This document shows positions 10,708 through 17,697 of a stretch of DNA of 22,669 bases, piece after piece. The stretch covers positions 1-22,669 of IMG/VR virus record IMGVR_UViG_3300023170_000193, one strand, 5' to 3'. Numbering within the stretch: the first letter of the stretch is position 1; each line of letters begins with the position of its first letter. Both the position numbers and the translations under genes were made by a program. This stretch comes from a virus. Under the pieces are notes generated by a model. That model was not told where the DNA came from and made no database searches. It worked only from the letters and a program-made list of their open reading frames with translations.

Positions 10708-12618
<1,911 letters not shown>

Positions 12619-12627
12619 GTGGGGAAA

Positions 12628-12972
12628 ATGAAAACACTAACGATAGAAACAAATGGTTCTGTAAGCATTTGTATCCTACAGGCAAATACTGAAAAAAGCA
12701 TAGTAAGCAATACAGAAGACGCTTTCTTTTCAGAAGCTGCCGTAAATGCTTTCAATGCAATAATAACGCAACTCCAGACGGAGGGGTGCCATTATGTTCA
12801 CTTTGAAAAATCAGACCATATTGAAATAAAACATAAGCGCCGCCTTGCAGAAGTAGAAGATTGGGCGGGGGATTTCCCAGATATTTTTGAAAACTTAGAT
12901 CAAGTTATAAGAGACTATGAAGCGGCAATTGCTTTAGCTCAAGCGGAAATAGAACACGCAGTATCTGAGTGA
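12628..12972 (+). CDS. Small protein of the fibre module, function unknown
   Basis: 114 residues from the ATG at 12628; AGGTGGGG sits just upstream, so it is preferred to the GTG at 12619 in the same frame. The N-terminal half looks like a small alpha/beta fold (LTIETNGSVSICILQA). The middle has HYVHFEKSDHIEIKHKRR, and the C-terminal half is a helical acidic coil (LDQVIRDYEAAIALAQAEIE). It begins 9 bases after the fibre stop. A fibre chaperone is a possible role because of this position, but I see no match to known fibre-assembly families. Function unknown. Confidence 0.6.
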   Translation: MKTLTIETNGSVSICILQANTEKSIVSNTEDAFFSEAAVNAFNAIITQLQTEGCHYVHFEKSDHIEIKHKRRLAEVEDWAGDFPDIFENLDQVIRDYEAAIALAQAEIEHAVSE

Positions 12973-12982
12973 GATTTTTAAA

Positions 12983-13705
12983 ATGCAAATTAAATTTTTT
13001 ACCGATGCCCATCTCATGGATGGTATACCAAAACCTGTGAAAGCAAATAAACATTTGCCATCATATTTTAAAGCTATTCCCCCTCAAACAACTTCTCACC
13101 CGTCAAGTGGAACTGTAAAAAGGTGTGTTCCTTTTTTAGAAGCTTGTTCGATGGGGTATATAATACCAATGTGGGCTGACATGTTTGTGACAGCTAAAGA
13201 TGGAGATTTGAATTTTGATTTTCCACCAAATTACATTCCGCAAGAAGATTTTAAGGGTAGAACAGGATCGGCATTTTCATTTCACAACATAGAGCAAATT
13301 AAAGATCACCCTCTTCAAAATAAAAAATATGGAGAACATACGTGCAAGCTACATAACCCTTGGATAATTGAAACATCCGAAGGCGTGTCCTGTTTGTTTA
13401 CATCACCTTTAAATCACATGGAAACGCGTTTAAAGATTTTAGACGGGGTTGTTGAGACGGACAAATACTACAACCACATTAATTTTCCTTTTTTATGGAC
13501 AGGTGGCGATGGTGAATTTTTTATTCCGCAGGGTACGCCATTAGTTCAAGTTATTCCTTTTCAAAGAACAGAATGTGAAGTTGGTTATGGGCAAGTAGAT
13601 TCTGAACGAAGAGATAAAACTCACGCTTCTATAGCCACTGTGATGAGGAATGGTTATAAAACACAGATACATCATAAGGGTGAGAAATTAAGGCTTGTAG
13701 AGTAA
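12983..13705 (+). CDS. DUF6065-like protein of the fibre-modification module
   Basis: 240 residues with no membrane segment. Notable pieces are KPVKANKHLPSYFKAIPPQ near the N-terminus, HNPWIIETSEGVSCLFTSP, LDGVVETDKYYNHINFPF and FFIPQGTPLVQVIPFQRTE. The NPW-x-I-x-T/G-V-S block and the G-T-P-L-V-Q-V-I-PF strand pattern suggest a double-stranded beta helix (cupin-like) core. The order resembles DUF6065, seen in bacteria and marine phages beside oxygenases; the name is from memory. AT-rich, like the next three genes. An oxygenase-linked or sugar-related role would be inference. Confidence 0.6.
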   Translation: MQIKFFTDAHLMDGIPKPVKANKHLPSYFKAIPPQTTSHPSSGTVKRCVPFLEACSMGYIIPMWADMFVTAKDGDLNFDFPPNYIPQEDFKGRTGSAFSFHNIEQIKDHPLQNKKYGEHTCKLHNPWIIETSEGVSCLFTSPLNHMETRLKILDGVVETDKYYNHINFPFLWTGGDGEFFIPQGTPLVQVIPFQRTECEVGYGQVDSERRDKTHASIATVMRNGYKTQIHHKGEKLRLVE

Positions 13706-13734
13706 AAGATTAAATATTTTCGGGAGTGGGAAAA

Positions 13735-14271
13735 ATGAGACAAAACTGGAGAATGTGGTCGGGGGCAATTAGTAATTTTCAAATTGCAAAAATAGTTTCA
13801 AAAGCTGAAAATATACAGAAGGCAGAAACATTTAACCAAGGCGGTTCCGAAGTAAGATCAAGCAGGGTGGCTTGGCTTTCTGACAATAAAGATATTTTGG
13901 ACATGTTGTTTGAATATGTTGAAGAGGCAAATCAAAACCACTTTAAAACACACGTCTATAAAAAAGCAGATATCCAGTATACGGAGTATCATGCTTCAGA
14001 AGGGGGCCATTATAATTGGCACCATGATATTGATTGGGTTCGCAATGATGGCTTGGATCGAAAGCTTAGTGTGACTGTGCAGTTGAGTGAACCACACGAA
14101 TACGAAGGGGGAAACTTTGAGTTTTCTGAGGTAGAAAGCCCAAATAGTCAAAGCCGTGCAAAAGGTACGGTTTTGGTGTTTCCCAGTTATTTAAGTCACA
14201 GGGTCATGCCCGTAACCAGAGGTATAAGAAAAAGTCTTGTTGCTTGGTTTGAGGGTCCGACTTGGCAATAG
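13735..14271 (+). CDS. 2-oxoglutarate/Fe(II) oxygenase, prolyl-4-hydroxylase-like
   Basis: 178 residues from the ATG at 13735 (GGGAGTGGGA upstream); an in-frame GTG at 13726 is less likely. The double-stranded beta-helix core shows the iron ligands H96-x-D98 (NWHHDIDW) and distal H155 (SHRVMPVTRG). The 2-oxoglutarate anchor is R165, ten residues after H155, and the closing strand is KSLVAWFEGPTWQ. This matches PKHD-type prolyl-4-hydroxylase-like enzymes, which hydroxylate protein or small-molecule substrates with O2 and 2-oxoglutarate. The stop overlaps the next start by 10 bases. Collagen stalk prolines are all at X, so the classical X-Pro-Gly target is absent. Substrate unknown. Confidence 0.85.
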   Translation: MRQNWRMWSGAISNFQIAKIVSKAENIQKAETFNQGGSEVRSSRVAWLSDNKDILDMLFEYVEEANQNHFKTHVYKKADIQYTEYHASEGGHYNWHHDIDWVRNDGLDRKLSVTVQLSEPHEYEGGNFEFSEVESPNSQSRAKGTVLVFPSYLSHRVMPVTRGIRKSLVAWFEGPTWQ

Positions 14272-16019
14272 TTTATCAGATATCTCTTCATGGGGATGCT
14301 TTTGATGCTAGGCAACTATCTTGGGAAAGTGCAATTGAACTTTCTGGCTGCAAGCCAGATCTTGCGTGGAAAGACCCAATACACAACAGATCTTTACTTA
14401 TTGGAGAATTTGGGTGTGCTGTAAGTCATCTGCGCGTATGGAGAAAAATTGCAGAGTCAGGTATTAACGGCATTATTTTAGAAGAAGATGCGGTCTTTAC
14501 CTCTATAGATCCCGTAGATGTTTCTGACAAATTAAGGGTATATCATAGCGTTTGGCTGGGGTATCGGTGGAATGATCTAGGTTACTGGTACAATGCTCAT
14601 GCGTATGCAATTACTCCAGATACGGCAAGGTATTTGTGCGAGGGGTTTTCGGATTCTATAATACCCGTAGACGAATGGTTGCCATATAAGTTAAAAGGAA
14701 AACAGAATTACTTTTATGTTCCCGAAAAGGTTCGTCAGATCCCAAGGGAAGATAGACCAAGCACAATAGAGGTGGGACCAATGAACGTGCATGTATTAAC
14801 TGTCGGTACAGATGAAACAAAAATGTGGGCGCTTGAGCAATCAGCAAAACGCTTTGGTGTAAGTTATCTTAACCTTGGAAACGGAGTTACTTGGGGCGGC
14901 GGCACGATGGAAGGCGAAGGAGGGGGACACAAAATCAATCTTGTTCGTGGTCATTTAACAAGCCTTCCAGACGAGGATATTGTTTTGTTCTGTGATGGCT
15001 ACGATGTAATGTTTGTTGATGACTTGCAAACTATTAAAGACCGTTTCTTTGGTTTTGATTGTGATATTCTTTTTGCAGCGGAAAGAAATTGTTGGCCTCA
15101 ACCTATATTAGCCGCTCAATTTCCTATGACTTCAAGCCCTTACAAATATCTGAATAGCGGTTTGTATATAGGTAAAGTTGGTATGCTTAAACAATTCTTA
15201 AACGAAGCTATTGCTGACGAACATGATGATCAATTATGGATTCAGAAACGGTTCCTCTCTGTTGACGACATTAACGTAAAGCTTGATTATGAGGGTTACA
15301 TTTTTCAGTGTGATGATGATGTTTCCTTTAATGGGATACAGGTATCAAACGGGATGTGCTGCCCTTGCATATATCATGGAAATGGTGGACCTGAAGCTAA
15401 ACAAAGATTCCTGAATTTGGCAAATAAAATTGGTTTTCAAAGCTCTGCATCTCAAGATCATCAGGTGCAATCCCCACCAATAAACTCTTTAGACTATGAG
15501 GAAGTAGCGCAAGATATTCTTGTGGTTCCATTTTGGAGTAAAGATAGGTGTCAAGAAATCATTCAAACCTCTGAGGCTGTTGGTGGATGGGGCAATATGG
15601 AAGGCGATAAGTTTCCCGCTCAAGAAATACGAGTAAGAAAACTTGGGTTATGGGACGAACTTGAGTGGGTTTGGAAGGAACAATTAGGGAAAGTAGCAGA
15701 AAAAAAATGGACTCCTATGGAACACATGGGGTTACGAGATGCGTTCACAATGCGTTATTCAATGGACACTCAGACGAGTTTAGGGTTTCATACAGATGCT
15801 TCATTGGTGACTGGCAGCGTAAAACTAAACGATGATTATGAAGGCGCGGAGCTTATTTTCCCGCATCAAAACTTCTCCAATAAAGATGTTCCCGTTGGGC
15901 ATTGCATCCTGTTTCCAAGTCAAGTGACGCATGGTCACAAGGTAGAGCCTTTGAAGTCTGGGGTAAAATACTCTCTTACAATGTGGACAAGTCGTTATCG
16001 CGGTGACGTAAATGAGTAA
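14262..16019 (+). CDS. Fused GT25 glycosyltransferase + PLOD-type glycosyltransferase/lysyl hydroxylase
   Basis: 585 residues; TTG start with GAGGG 6 bases upstream, inside the previous gene. Domain 1 (1 to about 172) is GT25, with GEFGCAVSH at 48-56 and LEEDAVF at 73-79; human COLGALT enzymes belong to this family. Domain 2 (174 to about 391) matches the LH3/PLOD glycosyltransferase: W211, GGGHK, FCDGYDVMF with D245/D248 (LH3 D112/D115), DDQL, and HGNG with H372 (LH3 H253). Domain 3 (about 420-585) is the PLOD Fe(II)/2-oxoglutarate domain: H510-x-D512 (FHTDAS), H559 (THGHK), and K569 where LH3 has R729. It likely forms hydroxylysine and adds one or two sugars to it. LH3 numbers are from memory; activity is inferred. 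Confidence 0.85.
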   Translation: MAIVYQISLHGDAFDARQLSWESAIELSGCKPDLAWKDPIHNRSLLIGEFGCAVSHLRVWRKIAESGINGIILEEDAVFTSIDPVDVSDKLRVYHSVWLGYRWNDLGYWYNAHAYAITPDTARYLCEGFSDSIIPVDEWLPYKLKGKQNYFYVPEKVRQIPREDRPSTIEVGPMNVHVLTVGTDETKMWALEQSAKRFGVSYLNLGNGVTWGGGTMEGEGGGHKINLVRGHLTSLPDEDIVLFCDGYDVMFVDDLQTIKDRFFGFDCDILFAAERNCWPQPILAAQFPMTSSPYKYLNSGLYIGKVGMLKQFLNEAIADEHDDQLWIQKRFLSVDDINVKLDYEGYIFQCDDDVSFNGIQVSNGMCCPCIYHGNGGPEAKQRFLNLANKIGFQSSASQDHQVQSPPINSLDYEEVAQDILVVPFWSKDRCQEIIQTSEAVGGWGNMEGDKFPAQEIRVRKLGLWDELEWVWKEQLGKVAEKKWTPMEHMGLRDAFTMRYSMDTQTSLGFHTDASLVTGSVKLNDDYEGAELIFPHQNFSNKDVPVGHCILFPSQVTHGHKVEPLKSGVKYSLTMWTSRYRGDVNE

Positions 16020-16560
16020 GTTTTTTGTTGAAATCGGTGCGGCAAACTTTAATACCTTGCTGCCTTTGGCAAAAGCGGGATGGCGAGGAATAGTAGTGGA
16101 ACCTGTTCCACACCTGTTTGATCAGTGTGTAGAAATGTTTTTGCCCTATGATGTTAGGGTCGTTCAAGCGGCTATTTCTGACTATGATGGGCATATAGAA
16201 TTTGCCGTTGCTAGAGACAACGGGACGTGGCTTACTGGGTGTTCCCATGTTGTTGCGGGTAATCATCTTGGTGAGAAGTTAAGTGATCATCCATTGAACA
16301 AGGATAATTTTAATGAAAGGATTACGGTAGATTGTCTCACTTTAGACAAATTGCTTAGTGGTGTAGACTCTGTGGACTTGATGAAGGTCGATGCAGAGGG
16401 ACATGAAAACAATATTTTCAACGCCTATTCGTTTCGGATAAAGCCTTCTTTCTTGAAAGTTGAACATAAGCACATAGATGACATTCATTTAAAACAAACT
16501 TTAGAACAAAATGGGTATTTGGTTTGGACAGAAAAAGATGATATATATGCAGTAACATAA
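16012..16560 (+). CDS. FkbM-family SAM-dependent methyltransferase
   Basis: 182 residues overlapping the previous stop by 8 bases, with GGTGA before the ATG. SAM-fold motifs: FFVEIGAANFNTLLPL (motif I), GIVVEPVP with the acidic ribose-binding Glu, VRVVQAAISDYDG, VDLMKVDAEGHENNIF and FLKVEHKH. The VDxEGHE signature is diagnostic of the FkbM/Methyltransf_21 group, many of which O-methylate sugars. It is shorter than many members but has the whole core. Placed directly after the fused glycosyltransferase, it may cap the fibre glycan with a methyl group. That target is inferred. Confidence 0.85.
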   Translation: MSKFFVEIGAANFNTLLPLAKAGWRGIVVEPVPHLFDQCVEMFLPYDVRVVQAAISDYDGHIEFAVARDNGTWLTGCSHVVAGNHLGEKLSDHPLNKDNFNERITVDCLTLDKLLSGVDSVDLMKVDAEGHENNIFNAYSFRIKPSFLKVEHKHIDDIHLKQTLEQNGYLVWTEKDDIYAVT

Positions 16561-16575
16561 CAAGGGATACTTTGT

Positions 16576-17697
16576 ATGCTTACTCAACGCCCTATAGCCA
16601 GCGCCCCCATAGGAACGTCAGGCACATCTGATTTTGTAATTCACTTAGATAGTGGCTCTTTCACGCTCAGTATGAAAGGTGCCGCAAAGCTCATTACCAA
16701 TGTTAAGCTGCCGGGTGAATTTTTAATAAACGGGCAAGCCATAACATTCACGACAGCTATGAACGTGGATGCGGATTCTGGTTCTTTTTCTGTTACGGGG
16801 CAAGATGTAACACTTCGTACTGGTAAGGTGGTTGAGGCAGAATCTGCAACCTATACTTACACGGGCCAAGCCATTGGCACCGCGATAGCTTTAAGTATAC
16901 CTCTGGACTCAGGCACGTTTGAGATAACAGATCAAACCGCTGTCGTTACCGCTCAACTTAACATCTCACTGGATAGCGGTTCGTTTGCTTACACAGGGCA
17001 ACCTATTTCTAAGGTAATAACGGAGGTCGTTGATTCTGGGTCGTTTACTTACTCTGGTCAAGATGTCGGCCTAACCAAAGTAATGAGCGTAAGCGCGGAG
17101 TCAGGATCCTTTGCTTTAACGGGTCAGGATGTAACGGGTGCTACCACAAGGCAAAGTGATTCTGGATCATTTAGCCTGACAGGCAACGATGTTGGCACCC
17201 GCATAGCAATGAACGTGTCCCTAGAGGACGTTGCTTTTGAGACGACGGGTCAAGACATTGGCACAACAAAAGCAATGAACATTGATCTGGACAGTGGCAC
17301 GTTTACGGTTACTGGACAGAATATTACAGAAGACATTACAGAAGTAGTTGACGCGGGATCCTTCACTTACTCTGGTCAGGTAATTAATTTCCCCATAGCC
17401 ATGAACGTGACCGCAGAGGCGGGTTCGTTTGCGCTTACTGGTGAGGATATTGATTTTGAAATTGCCTTTAGCATGGTTGCCGAAAGCGGCACCTTCACGC
17501 TTACTGGTCAAGATATAGCAAAATCTATTTCAGAGCGGTTGGATTCTGGTACATTCACATACAGCGGTCAGGACATATCCTTTAAGCAGGGTGTTTTCTC
17601 TGGAAGCTTTGAGCTTACTGTTGAGCTTACAGGTGTTCAAGTGTGGGGCCAGATTATTCCAAATCAAGATCCAAACTGGCAACAGCTTGTTGCTTAA
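16576..17697 (+). CDS. Repeat-rich beta protein of the tail region
   Basis: 373 residues; AAGGGA about 8 bases before the ATG. The bulk is 15 copies plus a half copy of a 20-22 residue unit, consensus xSGSFxLTGQDI followed by xxxxAMNVxA, e.g. DSGSFSVTGQDV, ESGSFALTGQDV, DSGTFTVTGQNI. Each unit looks like two short beta strands, so a solenoid or stacked hairpins is likely. The tail (QVWGQIIPNQDPNWQQLVA) is a short capping segment. Similar SGSF-x-TGQ repeats occur in marine phages. A tail or surface adhesin-like role is plausible; no enzyme motif. Sits between the methyltransferase and the second fibre. Confidence 0.7.
   Translation: MLTQRPIASAPIGTSGTSDFVIHLDSGSFTLSMKGAAKLITNVKLPGEFLINGQAITFTTAMNVDADSGSFSVTGQDVTLRTGKVVEAESATYTYTGQAIGTAIALSIPLDSGTFEITDQTAVVTAQLNISLDSGSFAYTGQPISKVITEVVDSGSFTYSGQDVGLTKVMSVSAESGSFALTGQDVTGATTRQSDSGSFSLTGNDVGTRIAMNVSLEDVAFETTGQDIGTTKAMNIDLDSGTFTVTGQNITEDITEVVDAGSFTYSGQVINFPIAMNVTAEAGSFALTGEDIDFEIAFSMVAESGTFTLTGQDIAKSISERLDSGTFTYSGQDISFKQGVFSGSFELTVELTGVQVWGQIIPNQDPNWQQLVA
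16648..17640 (+). repeat. About 15 degenerate 60-66 base coding repeats
   Basis: Tandem units encode [DE]-S-G-[ST]-F-x-x-[TS]-G-[QN]-[DN]-[IV], often followed by an AMNV spacer. Copy 4 (ESATYTYTGQA) and copy 10 (EDVAFETTGQD) are the most degenerate; a half copy (FSGSFELT) closes the array. Codons differ between copies, so recent expansion is unlikely. Confidence 0.85.

What the first reader, a model, noticed from the sequence alone, without database searches (positions are those of the whole stretch)
14262..16019. A phage protein that fuses all three collagen-lysine modification enzymes
One 585-residue protein carries a GT25 domain (GEFGCAVSH, LEEDAVF), a PLOD/LH3-type glycosyltransferase domain with D245, D248 and H372 at the places of the LH3 Mn ligands, and a PLOD-type lysyl-hydroxylase domain with H510-x-D512 and H559. 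In animals, Lys hydroxylation, Gal addition (COLGALT, GT25) and Glc addition (LH3) are on separate proteins or two of three on LH3. A single bacteriophage polypeptide with all three would be a compact collagen-decorating enzyme I have not seen described.
Basis: partly seen in the sequence, partly recalled or inferred. Interest (0 to 1): 0.95.

Follow-up and report, generated by a model that had tools for sequence, protein, structure and literature searches.

The report
Phage three-in-one collagen-lysine decorating enzyme
Many marine bacterial viruses carry one protein that joins the three enzymes animals use to hydroxylate and sugar-coat collagen lysines, encoded just downstream of a collagen-like fibre gene whose lysines lie almost only where such enzymes act, which suggests that bacteriophages make animal-style decorated collagen.

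Summary
The ORF at 14262-16019 encodes 585 aa with three domains: a COLGALT-type GT25 domain, a PLOD/LH3-type glycosyltransferase (Pfam GT_PLOD, E=1.4e-43) and a PLOD-type 2OG/Fe(II) lysyl-hydroxylase domain. A family profile hits human LH3 (1.9e-59), COLGALT1's catalytic domain (2e-38 with the GT25 profile) and mimivirus L230 (8e-15), and no prolyl hydroxylase. An AlphaFold model (pLDDT 88) matches solved structures of all three. It is a family, not an oddity: over 100 viral contigs, plus isolated Roseobacter and Synechococcus phages. In 36 members under 90% identical, the metal-binding and 2OG-anchoring residues of all three sites are invariant. Each of 49 fusion loci with at least 4 kb upstream has a collagen-like fibre gene there. 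In those fibres 867 collagen lysines are at Gly-X-Y position Y and one is at X. In pattern-sampled phages, 20 of 96 lysine-rich and 0 of 99 lysine-poor collagen loci carry GT_PLOD. A second family (GT4-GT25-hydroxylase) sits in the same place in other phages. Best reading: the enzyme hydroxylates X-K-G lysines of the tail-fibre stalk and adds two sugars. The chemistry and the sugars are inferred. No description was found in the open-access papers searched. Closest known: mimivirus L230 (GT25+LH) and the human LH3-COLGALT1 complex.

The parts
14262..16019 (+). Three-domain GT25 - GT_PLOD - lysyl hydroxylase fusion, 585 aa, TTG start
   Evidence: relatives; catalytic residues invariant
14262..14777 (+). 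GT25 domain (residues 1-172), COLGALT catalytic-domain type; E74-E75-D76 is the metal motif (COLGALT1 E435-D436-D437)
   Evidence: Pfam 6.6e-10; family profile to COLGALT1 2e-38; Foldseek 9evj/9evk; EDD core stated in PMC13382579
14784..15428 (+). PLOD/LH3-type glycosyltransferase domain (residues 175-389); D245, D248, H372 metal ligands; W211, K224, Y247, W278, N298, D322, D323, Q324 match R699 active-site residues
   Evidence: Pfam 1.4e-43; R699 6e-29 and LH3 5e-22; Foldseek 6wfv TM 0.82; R699 residues named in PMC11838735
15474..16016 (+). PLOD-type 2OG/Fe(II) lysyl hydroxylase domain (residues 405-585); H510, D512, H559 Fe triad; Y499 and K569 2OG carboxylate anchors
   Evidence: LH3 and L230 about 1e-14 by profile; Foldseek L230 6ax6 TM 0.76; L230 residues named in PMC5802723
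10708..12618 (+). Collagen-like tail fibre, 636 aa: the presumed substrate
   Evidence: Pfam Collagen 4e-36; PHROG tail fibre families
11293..12012 (+). 80 continuous Gly-X-Y triplets with 29 Lys, all at position Y (mostly QK-GQ/QK-GE), none at X; no Pro at Y
   Evidence: Lys positions
13726..14271 (+). Separate small 2OG/Fe(II) oxygenase (PKHD/PiuC-like), overlapping the start of the fusion; partner hydroxylase of unknown substrate
   Evidence: PF13640 6.5e-15; PiuC/3dkq matches; a relative in 76 of 96 loci with divergent fusions
16012..16560 (+). FkbM-type methyltransferase overlapping the end of the fusion; possible sugar O-methylation (optional partner)
   Evidence: PF05050 5.6e-16; present in 17 of 96 loci with divergent fusions
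12983..13705 (+). DUF6065 protein inside the cassette, function unknown, optional
   Evidence: PF19541 2.2e-6, phrog_7084 3e-51; 12 of 96 divergent loci
12619..12972 (+). Small ORF directly after the fibre gene, 117 aa, no family; found only in near-identical relatives

Best explanation
This is a phage collagen-lysine modification enzyme that works on the phage's own collagen-like tail fibre. The C-terminal domain hydroxylates lysines at the Y position of Gly-X-Lys-Gly, using O2, 2-oxoglutarate and Fe(II). The GT25 domain transfers a first hexose from a UDP-sugar to the new hydroxyl. The PLOD-type GT domain adds a second hexose, probably glucose. By analogy with animals the reactions would occur on chains that have not yet folded into the triple helix. 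The result would be a tail-fibre stalk studded with (di)glycosyl-hydroxylysine at regularly spaced outward-facing sites. Shown here: the three domains, the conserved active sites, the folds, the strict gene linkage and the Y-only lysine pattern. Inferred: that all three reactions occur, their order, the sugars, and the benefit (a stiffer, protease-resistant or non-aggregating stalk, or a glycan surface that affects adsorption).
For: (1) Domains: GT_PLOD, GT25 and PLOD-type LH by sequence and by predicted fold. (2) In 36 family members below 90% identity, E74/D76, D245/D248/H372, D323/Q324, H510/D512/H559, Y499 and K569 are invariant. Pfam scans find GT25 and GT_PLOD in 32 of 32 members. (3) In 50,697 phage records GT_PLOD occurs in 11, always inside the full three-domain protein. 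(4) All 49 enzyme-selected loci with at least 4 kb upstream have a lysine-bearing collagen-like fibre gene there, ending 379-4456 bp before the enzyme, median 1716. (5) In those fibres 867 Lys are at Y and 1 at X. 61% are followed by Gly-Gln, so KGE/KGD salt bridges alone do not explain the placement. (6) In pattern-sampled phage collagens GT_PLOD occurs in 20 of 96 Lys-rich and 0 of 99 Lys-poor loci, Fisher p=2e-7, so Thr-rich GPT stalks are not the partner. (7) A different fusion, GT4-GT25-OGFOD2/2OG, lies downstream of the same kind of Lys-rich fibre in six of six loci checked. (8) Purifying selection on all three domains.
Against: No biochemical or proteomic evidence exists here for hydroxylysine or its glycosides in any phage. 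The 2OG-anchoring residue is Lys, not the PLOD Arg; Lys is used in this role by other 2OG hydroxylases (own knowledge), so this is tolerable but a departure. The GT25 domain of the window's clade is shortened at its N terminus and could have lost or changed activity. Interdomain arrangement is not predicted with confidence (pTM 0.49). In Lys-rich collagen stretches with at least 5 kb downstream, 15 of 28 show none of the three domains within the fetched stretch, so Lys-rich collagen does not always come with this enzyme nearby.
Confidence: 0.8

Rival explanations
1. The three domains are right, but the sugar pattern is not the animal one. For example the GT25 domain adds glucose directly (as in mimivirus L230), or only one of the two GT domains is active, so the product is a monosaccharide or a different disaccharide.
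For: L230's GT25 domain transfers Glc, not Gal (PMC9614988). The window clade's GT25 has lost the canonical N-terminal motif. R699 uses UDP-glucose and will also accept glucose (PMC11838735).
Against: The catalytic residues of both GT domains are invariant across the family and dN/dS is low for both. The GT25 domain is closest to COLGALT1, a galactosyltransferase. None of this fixes sugar identity.
Confidence: 0.45
2. The hydroxylase domain acts on another residue (proline, or a non-collagen target) and the GTs glycosylate Thr or other residues of the stalk.
For: Position Y of these stalks is about half Thr (1633 of 3275 triplets), and bacterial collagens such as BclA are glycosylated (PMC8968730). 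Domain family does not prove substrate. Lys569 is at the place where prolyl hydroxylases carry Lys (own knowledge).
Against: The profile finds lysyl but not prolyl hydroxylases in the PDB at E<=1. Pro is nearly absent at Y, the prolyl 4-hydroxylase site (14 of 3275). GPT-rich, Lys-poor collagens lack GT_PLOD in 99 of 99 loci.
Confidence: 0.08
3. The GT domains modify host lipopolysaccharide or another host glycan (GT25 proteins are often LPS enzymes), and the neighbourhood is coincidental.
For: Pfam describes GT25 as LPS biosynthesis. Phages do alter host surface glycans (own knowledge).
Against: Linkage to a Lys-bearing collagen fibre in 49 of 49 loci across unlike phages, including T4-like cyanophages and a roseophage. 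GT25 is closest to COLGALT1 rather than bacterial GT25. Physical fusion to a lysyl hydroxylase.
Confidence: 0.04
4. One or more domains are inactive scaffold, as the accessory domain of LH3 is, so that the protein is in effect a bifunctional enzyme.
For: LH3's accessory domain and COLGALT1's N-terminal domain are related GT folds, the latter inactive (PMC13382579). L019 carries a paralogue whose GT_PLOD lost its DxxD.
Against: No family member in the 36-sequence set has lost a metal-binding residue in any of the three domains.
Confidence: 0.15

Closest known systems
Human LH3 (PLOD3)
   Same: GT_PLOD domain and C-terminal lysyl hydroxylase domain in one chain; matching metal and Fe ligands; top whole-chain Foldseek match
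   Different: LH3 order is GT - GT-like accessory domain - LH, about 740 aa, and an external COLGALT1 supplies galactose. The phage puts an apparently active GT25 first, is 585 aa, and has Lys569 in place of the 2OG-binding Arg
Human COLGALT1 (GLT25D1), alone and as the LH3-COLGALT1 complex (8zgc)
   Same: GT25 catalytic domain (family profile E=2e-38) with the E-[ED]-D metal motif; together the human complex has the same three activities
   Different: Two polypeptides in a heterotetramer in humans, one polypeptide here; COLGALT1 has a second, inactive GT domain; the window clade's GT25 is shortened
Mimivirus L230
   Same: Viral fusion of a GT25 domain (N-terminal) with a C-terminal lysyl hydroxylase acting on viral collagen (PMC9614988, PMC5802723)
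   Different: 895 aa, infects amoebae, no PLOD-type GT reported, transfers Glc. Described as two of the three activities
Mimivirus R699 and R655
   Same: R699 is a stand-alone GT_PLOD collagen glucosyltransferase whose active-site residues are conserved here; R655 is a stand-alone GT25
   Different: Separate proteins in a eukaryotic virus
phrog_61 ('2OG-Fe(II) oxygenase') and UniProt 'procollagen-lysine 5-dioxygenase' of uncultured Caudovirales phage
   Same: The same phage family is already clustered (E=7e-82, residues 15-582), and phage proteins carry automatic PLOD names (A0A6J5M1Y6)
   Different: Annotation only: neither the three-domain architecture nor the link to lysine-patterned collagen fibres was found described in the searched literature

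Membership tests
PLOD / collagen lysyl hydroxylase domain | 2OG oxygenase fold closest to LH1-3/L230 with HxD...H and a basic 2OG anchor | tested here: met
   Profile to L230/LH3 at 8e-15 and 9e-15, no prolyl hydroxylase at E<=1; Foldseek 6ax6 TM 0.76; H510/D512/H559, Y499, K569 invariant. The anchor is K, not R
PLOD / collagen lysyl hydroxylase domain | Hydroxylates X-Lys-Gly in collagen | not testable with these tools
   Indirect only: linked collagens carry Lys at Y in 867 of 868 cases
PLOD glycosyltransferase (GT_PLOD, PF25342) | Score above the curated cut-off; DxxD and His metal ligands; R699/LH3 acceptor and UDP-site residues | tested here: met
   149 bits against 27; D245, D248, H372, W278, N298, D322/D323/Q324, K224 aligned to R699 and conserved in at least 35 of 36
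GT25 / COLGALT | Pfam GT25 above cut-off; ExGC..SH and E-[ED]-D motifs; closer to COLGALT than to bacterial GT25 | tested here: met
   39.6 bits against 24; E49, C52, S55, H56, E74, D76 invariant; COLGALT1 2e-38, R655 3e-15, bacterial GT25 3e-12
GT25 / COLGALT | Canonical N-terminal INLxRRxDRR segment | tested here: not met
   Present in cyanophage-type members, replaced by YQISLHGxAxDAR in the window's clade; Pfam match covers only positions 52-100 of 199
LH3-like multidomain enzyme | Domain order GT_PLOD - accessory GT-like - LH | tested here: not met
   Order here is GT25 - GT_PLOD - LH
Collagen-like phage tail fibre (substrate) | Long uninterrupted Gly-X-Y run in a tail-fibre gene | tested here: met
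   80 triplets, Pfam Collagen 4e-36, PHROG tail fibre

The most novel reading that the evidence does not exclude
Marine bacteriophages as a class make animal-style Glc-Gal-hydroxylysine (or a close analogue) on collagen-like tail-fibre stalks with single-chain three-activity enzymes. At least two architectures (GT25-GT_PLOD-LH and GT4-GT25-LH) arose to serve the same lysine-patterned stalks, so the whole collagen-lysine pathway exists in viruses of bacteria, outside eukaryotes and their viruses.
Probability: 0.55. Interest if true: 0.92.

Novelty: new variant of a known kind. Interest (0 to 1): 0.86.

Why it matters
Hydroxylysine and its glycosides are regarded as a hallmark of animal collagen, with mimivirus as the exception known from outside animals (PMC9614988); a 2022 review of prokaryotic collagens says prokaryotes cannot make all the vertebrate modifications and, in the passages read, names no phage enzyme for lysine (PMC8968730). 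A compact three-in-one phage enzyme would (a) extend the pathway to bacteriophages and bear on its origin, (b) give a new kind of virion glycosylation that may affect phage adsorption and stability in the sea, (c) offer a single-chain tool for making hydroxylated, glycosylated collagen in bacteria, which PMC9546862 says has not been possible, and (d) allow study of how one chain hands a lysine through three active sites. Isolated phages carry it, so it can be tested now.

Tried and rejected
Assembly chimera of separate genes: rejected, since the full fusion recurs in independent phages down to 38% identity.

Chance motif matches: rejected by profile E-values and fold.

Prolyl hydroxylase for the third domain: no prolyl hydroxylase in the profile search and no Pro at Y in the window's stalk. 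Structure search does list prolyl hydroxylases, but below the lysyl hydroxylases.

Host origin: a scan of 84,980 species genomes gave one hit, a contig of a Marinimicrobia MAG with the same fibre-enzyme arrangement. 199 genomes of that phylum searched with PF25342 added none. Plasmids gave only partial matches to single domains.

The original L230 paper is not held. Searches for earlier descriptions in phages found none. The library is open-access only, so absence is not proof.
Full report
WHAT IS THERE. The ORF 14262-16019 on the + strand is open for 585 residues. It overlaps the end of an upstream small 2OG oxygenase gene (13726-14271) and the start of a downstream FkbM methyltransferase gene (16012-16560), as expected in a tightly packed phage operon. 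The window is a 22.7 kb virus record with phage portal, major capsid and tail-fibre genes.

DOMAINS BY SEQUENCE. Pfam finds GT_PLOD (PF25342) at 1.4e-43, GT25 (PF01755) at 6.6e-10 and the 2OG oxygenase domain (PF13640) at 2.2e-5; the last is slightly below its cut-off. A single-sequence search of the PDB already hits human LH3 in both its GT and its hydroxylase domain (3e-31 overall), mimivirus R699 (5.5e-28), the L230 hydroxylase (1.3e-7) and human COLGALT1 (1.7e-6). With a 32-member family profile these become LH3 1.9e-59, R699 2.4e-43, COLGALT1 1.3e-23 and L230 4e-15. The hydroxylase domain alone retrieves L230 and LH3 at about 1e-14, then PiuC at 2.5e-4, and no prolyl hydroxylase at E<=1. 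The GT25 domain alone retrieves COLGALT1 at 2e-38, mimivirus R655 at 3e-15 and bacterial GT25 at 3e-12. The COLGALT1 stretch matched is the C-terminal, catalytically active one, whose metal motif is E435-D436-D437 (PMC13382579); it aligns with E74-E75-D76 here.

ACTIVE SITES. By the alignment, the R699 residues reported to bind metal, UDP or sugar (PMC11838735) correspond to W211, K224, D245, Y247, D248, W278, N298, D322, D323, Q324 and H372 of the phage protein. In 36 relatives below 90% identity each is conserved in at least 35. The hydroxylase triad H510, D512, H559 and Y499 match L230 H825, D827, H877 and Y814 (PMC5802723). The residue at L230 R887 is Lys569, invariant in the family. For GT25, E49, S55, H56, E74 and D76 are invariant. 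dN/dS approximations are low for all three domains (for example 0.12/2.1 for GT25 and 0.24/1.7 for GT_PLOD against L007).

FOLD. AlphaFold with the 32-sequence alignment gives mean pLDDT 88.3 and pTM 0.49: good domains, uncertain arrangement. Foldseek against the PDB places the middle domain on the human LH3 GT domain (6wfv, TM 0.82 by target length, 2.5 A) and on R699, the last domain on L230 LH (TM 0.76) and the first on COLGALT1 (9evj/9evk, 3.3-4.0 A over about 190-230 columns). The closest viral prediction is a 610-aa protein at 41% identity over the full length.

A WIDESPREAD PHAGE FAMILY. A narrow scan of IMG/VR gave 13 loci. A profile-guided scan found 303 relatives and kept the best 80. 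Among 50,697 phage records, 11 carry it, all over at least 80% of its length: Roseobacter phage CRP-6, Synechococcus phages S-CAM9, S-PRM1, S-8S53/55/56 and a single-cell marine virus. Searching with the GT_PLOD domain alone gives the same 11 records, so in known phages this domain has been seen only within the fusion. In 84,980 bacterial and archaeal species genomes only one contig matched. The three domains' distance matrices are correlated (Mantel r 0.56-0.84, 0 of 2000 permutations as high), as expected if they have largely travelled together.

THE SUBSTRATE. Upstream in the window, 10708-12618 encodes a tail fibre with 80 uninterrupted Gly-X-Y triplets. All 29 of their lysines are at Y and none is at X. 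Across loci selected only for the enzyme, all 49 with at least 4 kb upstream contain a Lys-bearing collagen-like ORF there. Over 51 distinct ORFs and 3275 triplets there are 867 Lys at Y and 1 at X. In animals the lysines modified are those at Y (PMC13382579). Lysine at Y is also favoured in collagens for helix stability (own knowledge), so a control was needed. Phage collagens sampled by a GPT pattern and without the enzyme in the fetched stretch have 21 Lys at X and 156 at Y in 7345 triplets, that is fewer lysines and about 12% at X against 0.1% here (Fisher p=4e-16). Also, 532 of 867 Y-lysines are followed by Gly-Gln rather than the salt-bridging Gly-Glu/Asp.

REVERSE TEST. Contigs were pulled by collagen DNA patterns alone. 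GT_PLOD occurred in 20 of 96 loci with Lys-rich collagen and in 0 of 99 with Lys-poor collagen (p=2e-7). Most fetched stretches are short, so the 20 is a lower bound. With at least 5 kb downstream the numbers are 10 of 28 and 0 of 23. Several of the Lys-rich remainder carry a different fusion: GT4-GT25-OGFOD2-like/2OG (about 770 aa) or GT4-OGFOD2-like/2OG (about 575 aa). In six loci of the 770-aa kind the upstream collagen again has 0 Lys at X and 39-250 at Y. Two unlike enzymes with the same hydroxylase-plus-glycosyltransferase logic next to the same lysine pattern is strong circumstantial support for a shared chemistry.

HOW IT PROBABLY WORKS. Lysines at GxKG in newly made fibre chains are hydroxylated by the C-terminal domain, glycosylated by GT25 and extended by the PLOD-type GT, before or during trimer folding. 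In humans this takes two proteins in an LH3-COLGALT1 complex (PMC13382579); in mimivirus L230 has two of the activities (PMC9614988) and R699 the third (PMC9546862). The phage protein would do all three in one chain shorter than LH3. Which sugars are used, and whether both GT domains are active in the window's clade, where GT25 has a remodelled N terminus, are open. The adjacent small 2OG oxygenase (a relative in 76 of 96 divergent loci) and the FkbM methyltransferase (17 of 96) may add further modifications.

KNOWN OR NEW. Each domain belongs to a known family. The closest described enzymes are L230, R699, LH3 and COLGALT1. The phage family exists in databases as phrog_61, hypothetical proteins or '2OG oxygenase', and some phage proteins carry an automatic 'procollagen-lysine 5-dioxygenase' name. 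The CRP-6 genome paper mentions neither collagen, nor glycosyltransferase, nor oxygenase. No paper describing a phage collagen-lysine pathway or the triple fusion was found in the open-access library. I therefore rate it a new variant of a known kind with high interest. The step from architecture to activity is the main uncertainty and is directly testable in isolated phages.

Noticed in passing
L184:7222-9525, L172:1227-3554, L329-L335; L103:5235-6968, L110:4158-5870; L122:3-1541: A second phage fusion family, GT4 (GT-B) - GT25 - OGFOD2-like/2OG oxygenase (about 770 aa), with a shorter GT4-OGFOD2-like/2OG form (about 575 aa) and a GT4-GT25 ORF that runs off its contig end (513 aa), lies next to Lys-rich collagen fibres; in the six full-length loci checked the collagen had 0 Lys at X and 39-250 at Y.
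   Followed up: partly
L019:3763-4941: Directly after the fusion in Marine virus AG-345-L05 lies a paralogue with an apparently good GT25 domain and a GT_PLOD domain that has lost its DxxD metal motif, resembling the GT-like accessory domain of LH3.
   Followed up: no
window 13726-14271: Small PKHD/PiuC-like 2OG oxygenase just upstream of the fusion, present near 76 of 96 divergent fusions; substrate unknown, possibly another stalk residue.
   Followed up: partly
window 12983-13705: DUF6065 / phrog_7084 protein inside the fibre-modification cassette, in 12 of 96 divergent loci; no known function.
   Followed up: no
L099, L147, L100, L138: Clusters of three or four separate Lys-rich collagen-like fibre genes in one phage stretch, with all collagen Lys at Y.
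   Followed up: no
window 16576-17697: 373-aa protein made of degenerate repeats around 'SGSFTxTGQDV', in the same operon and conserved near 40 of 96 divergent fusions; no confident family.
   Followed up: no
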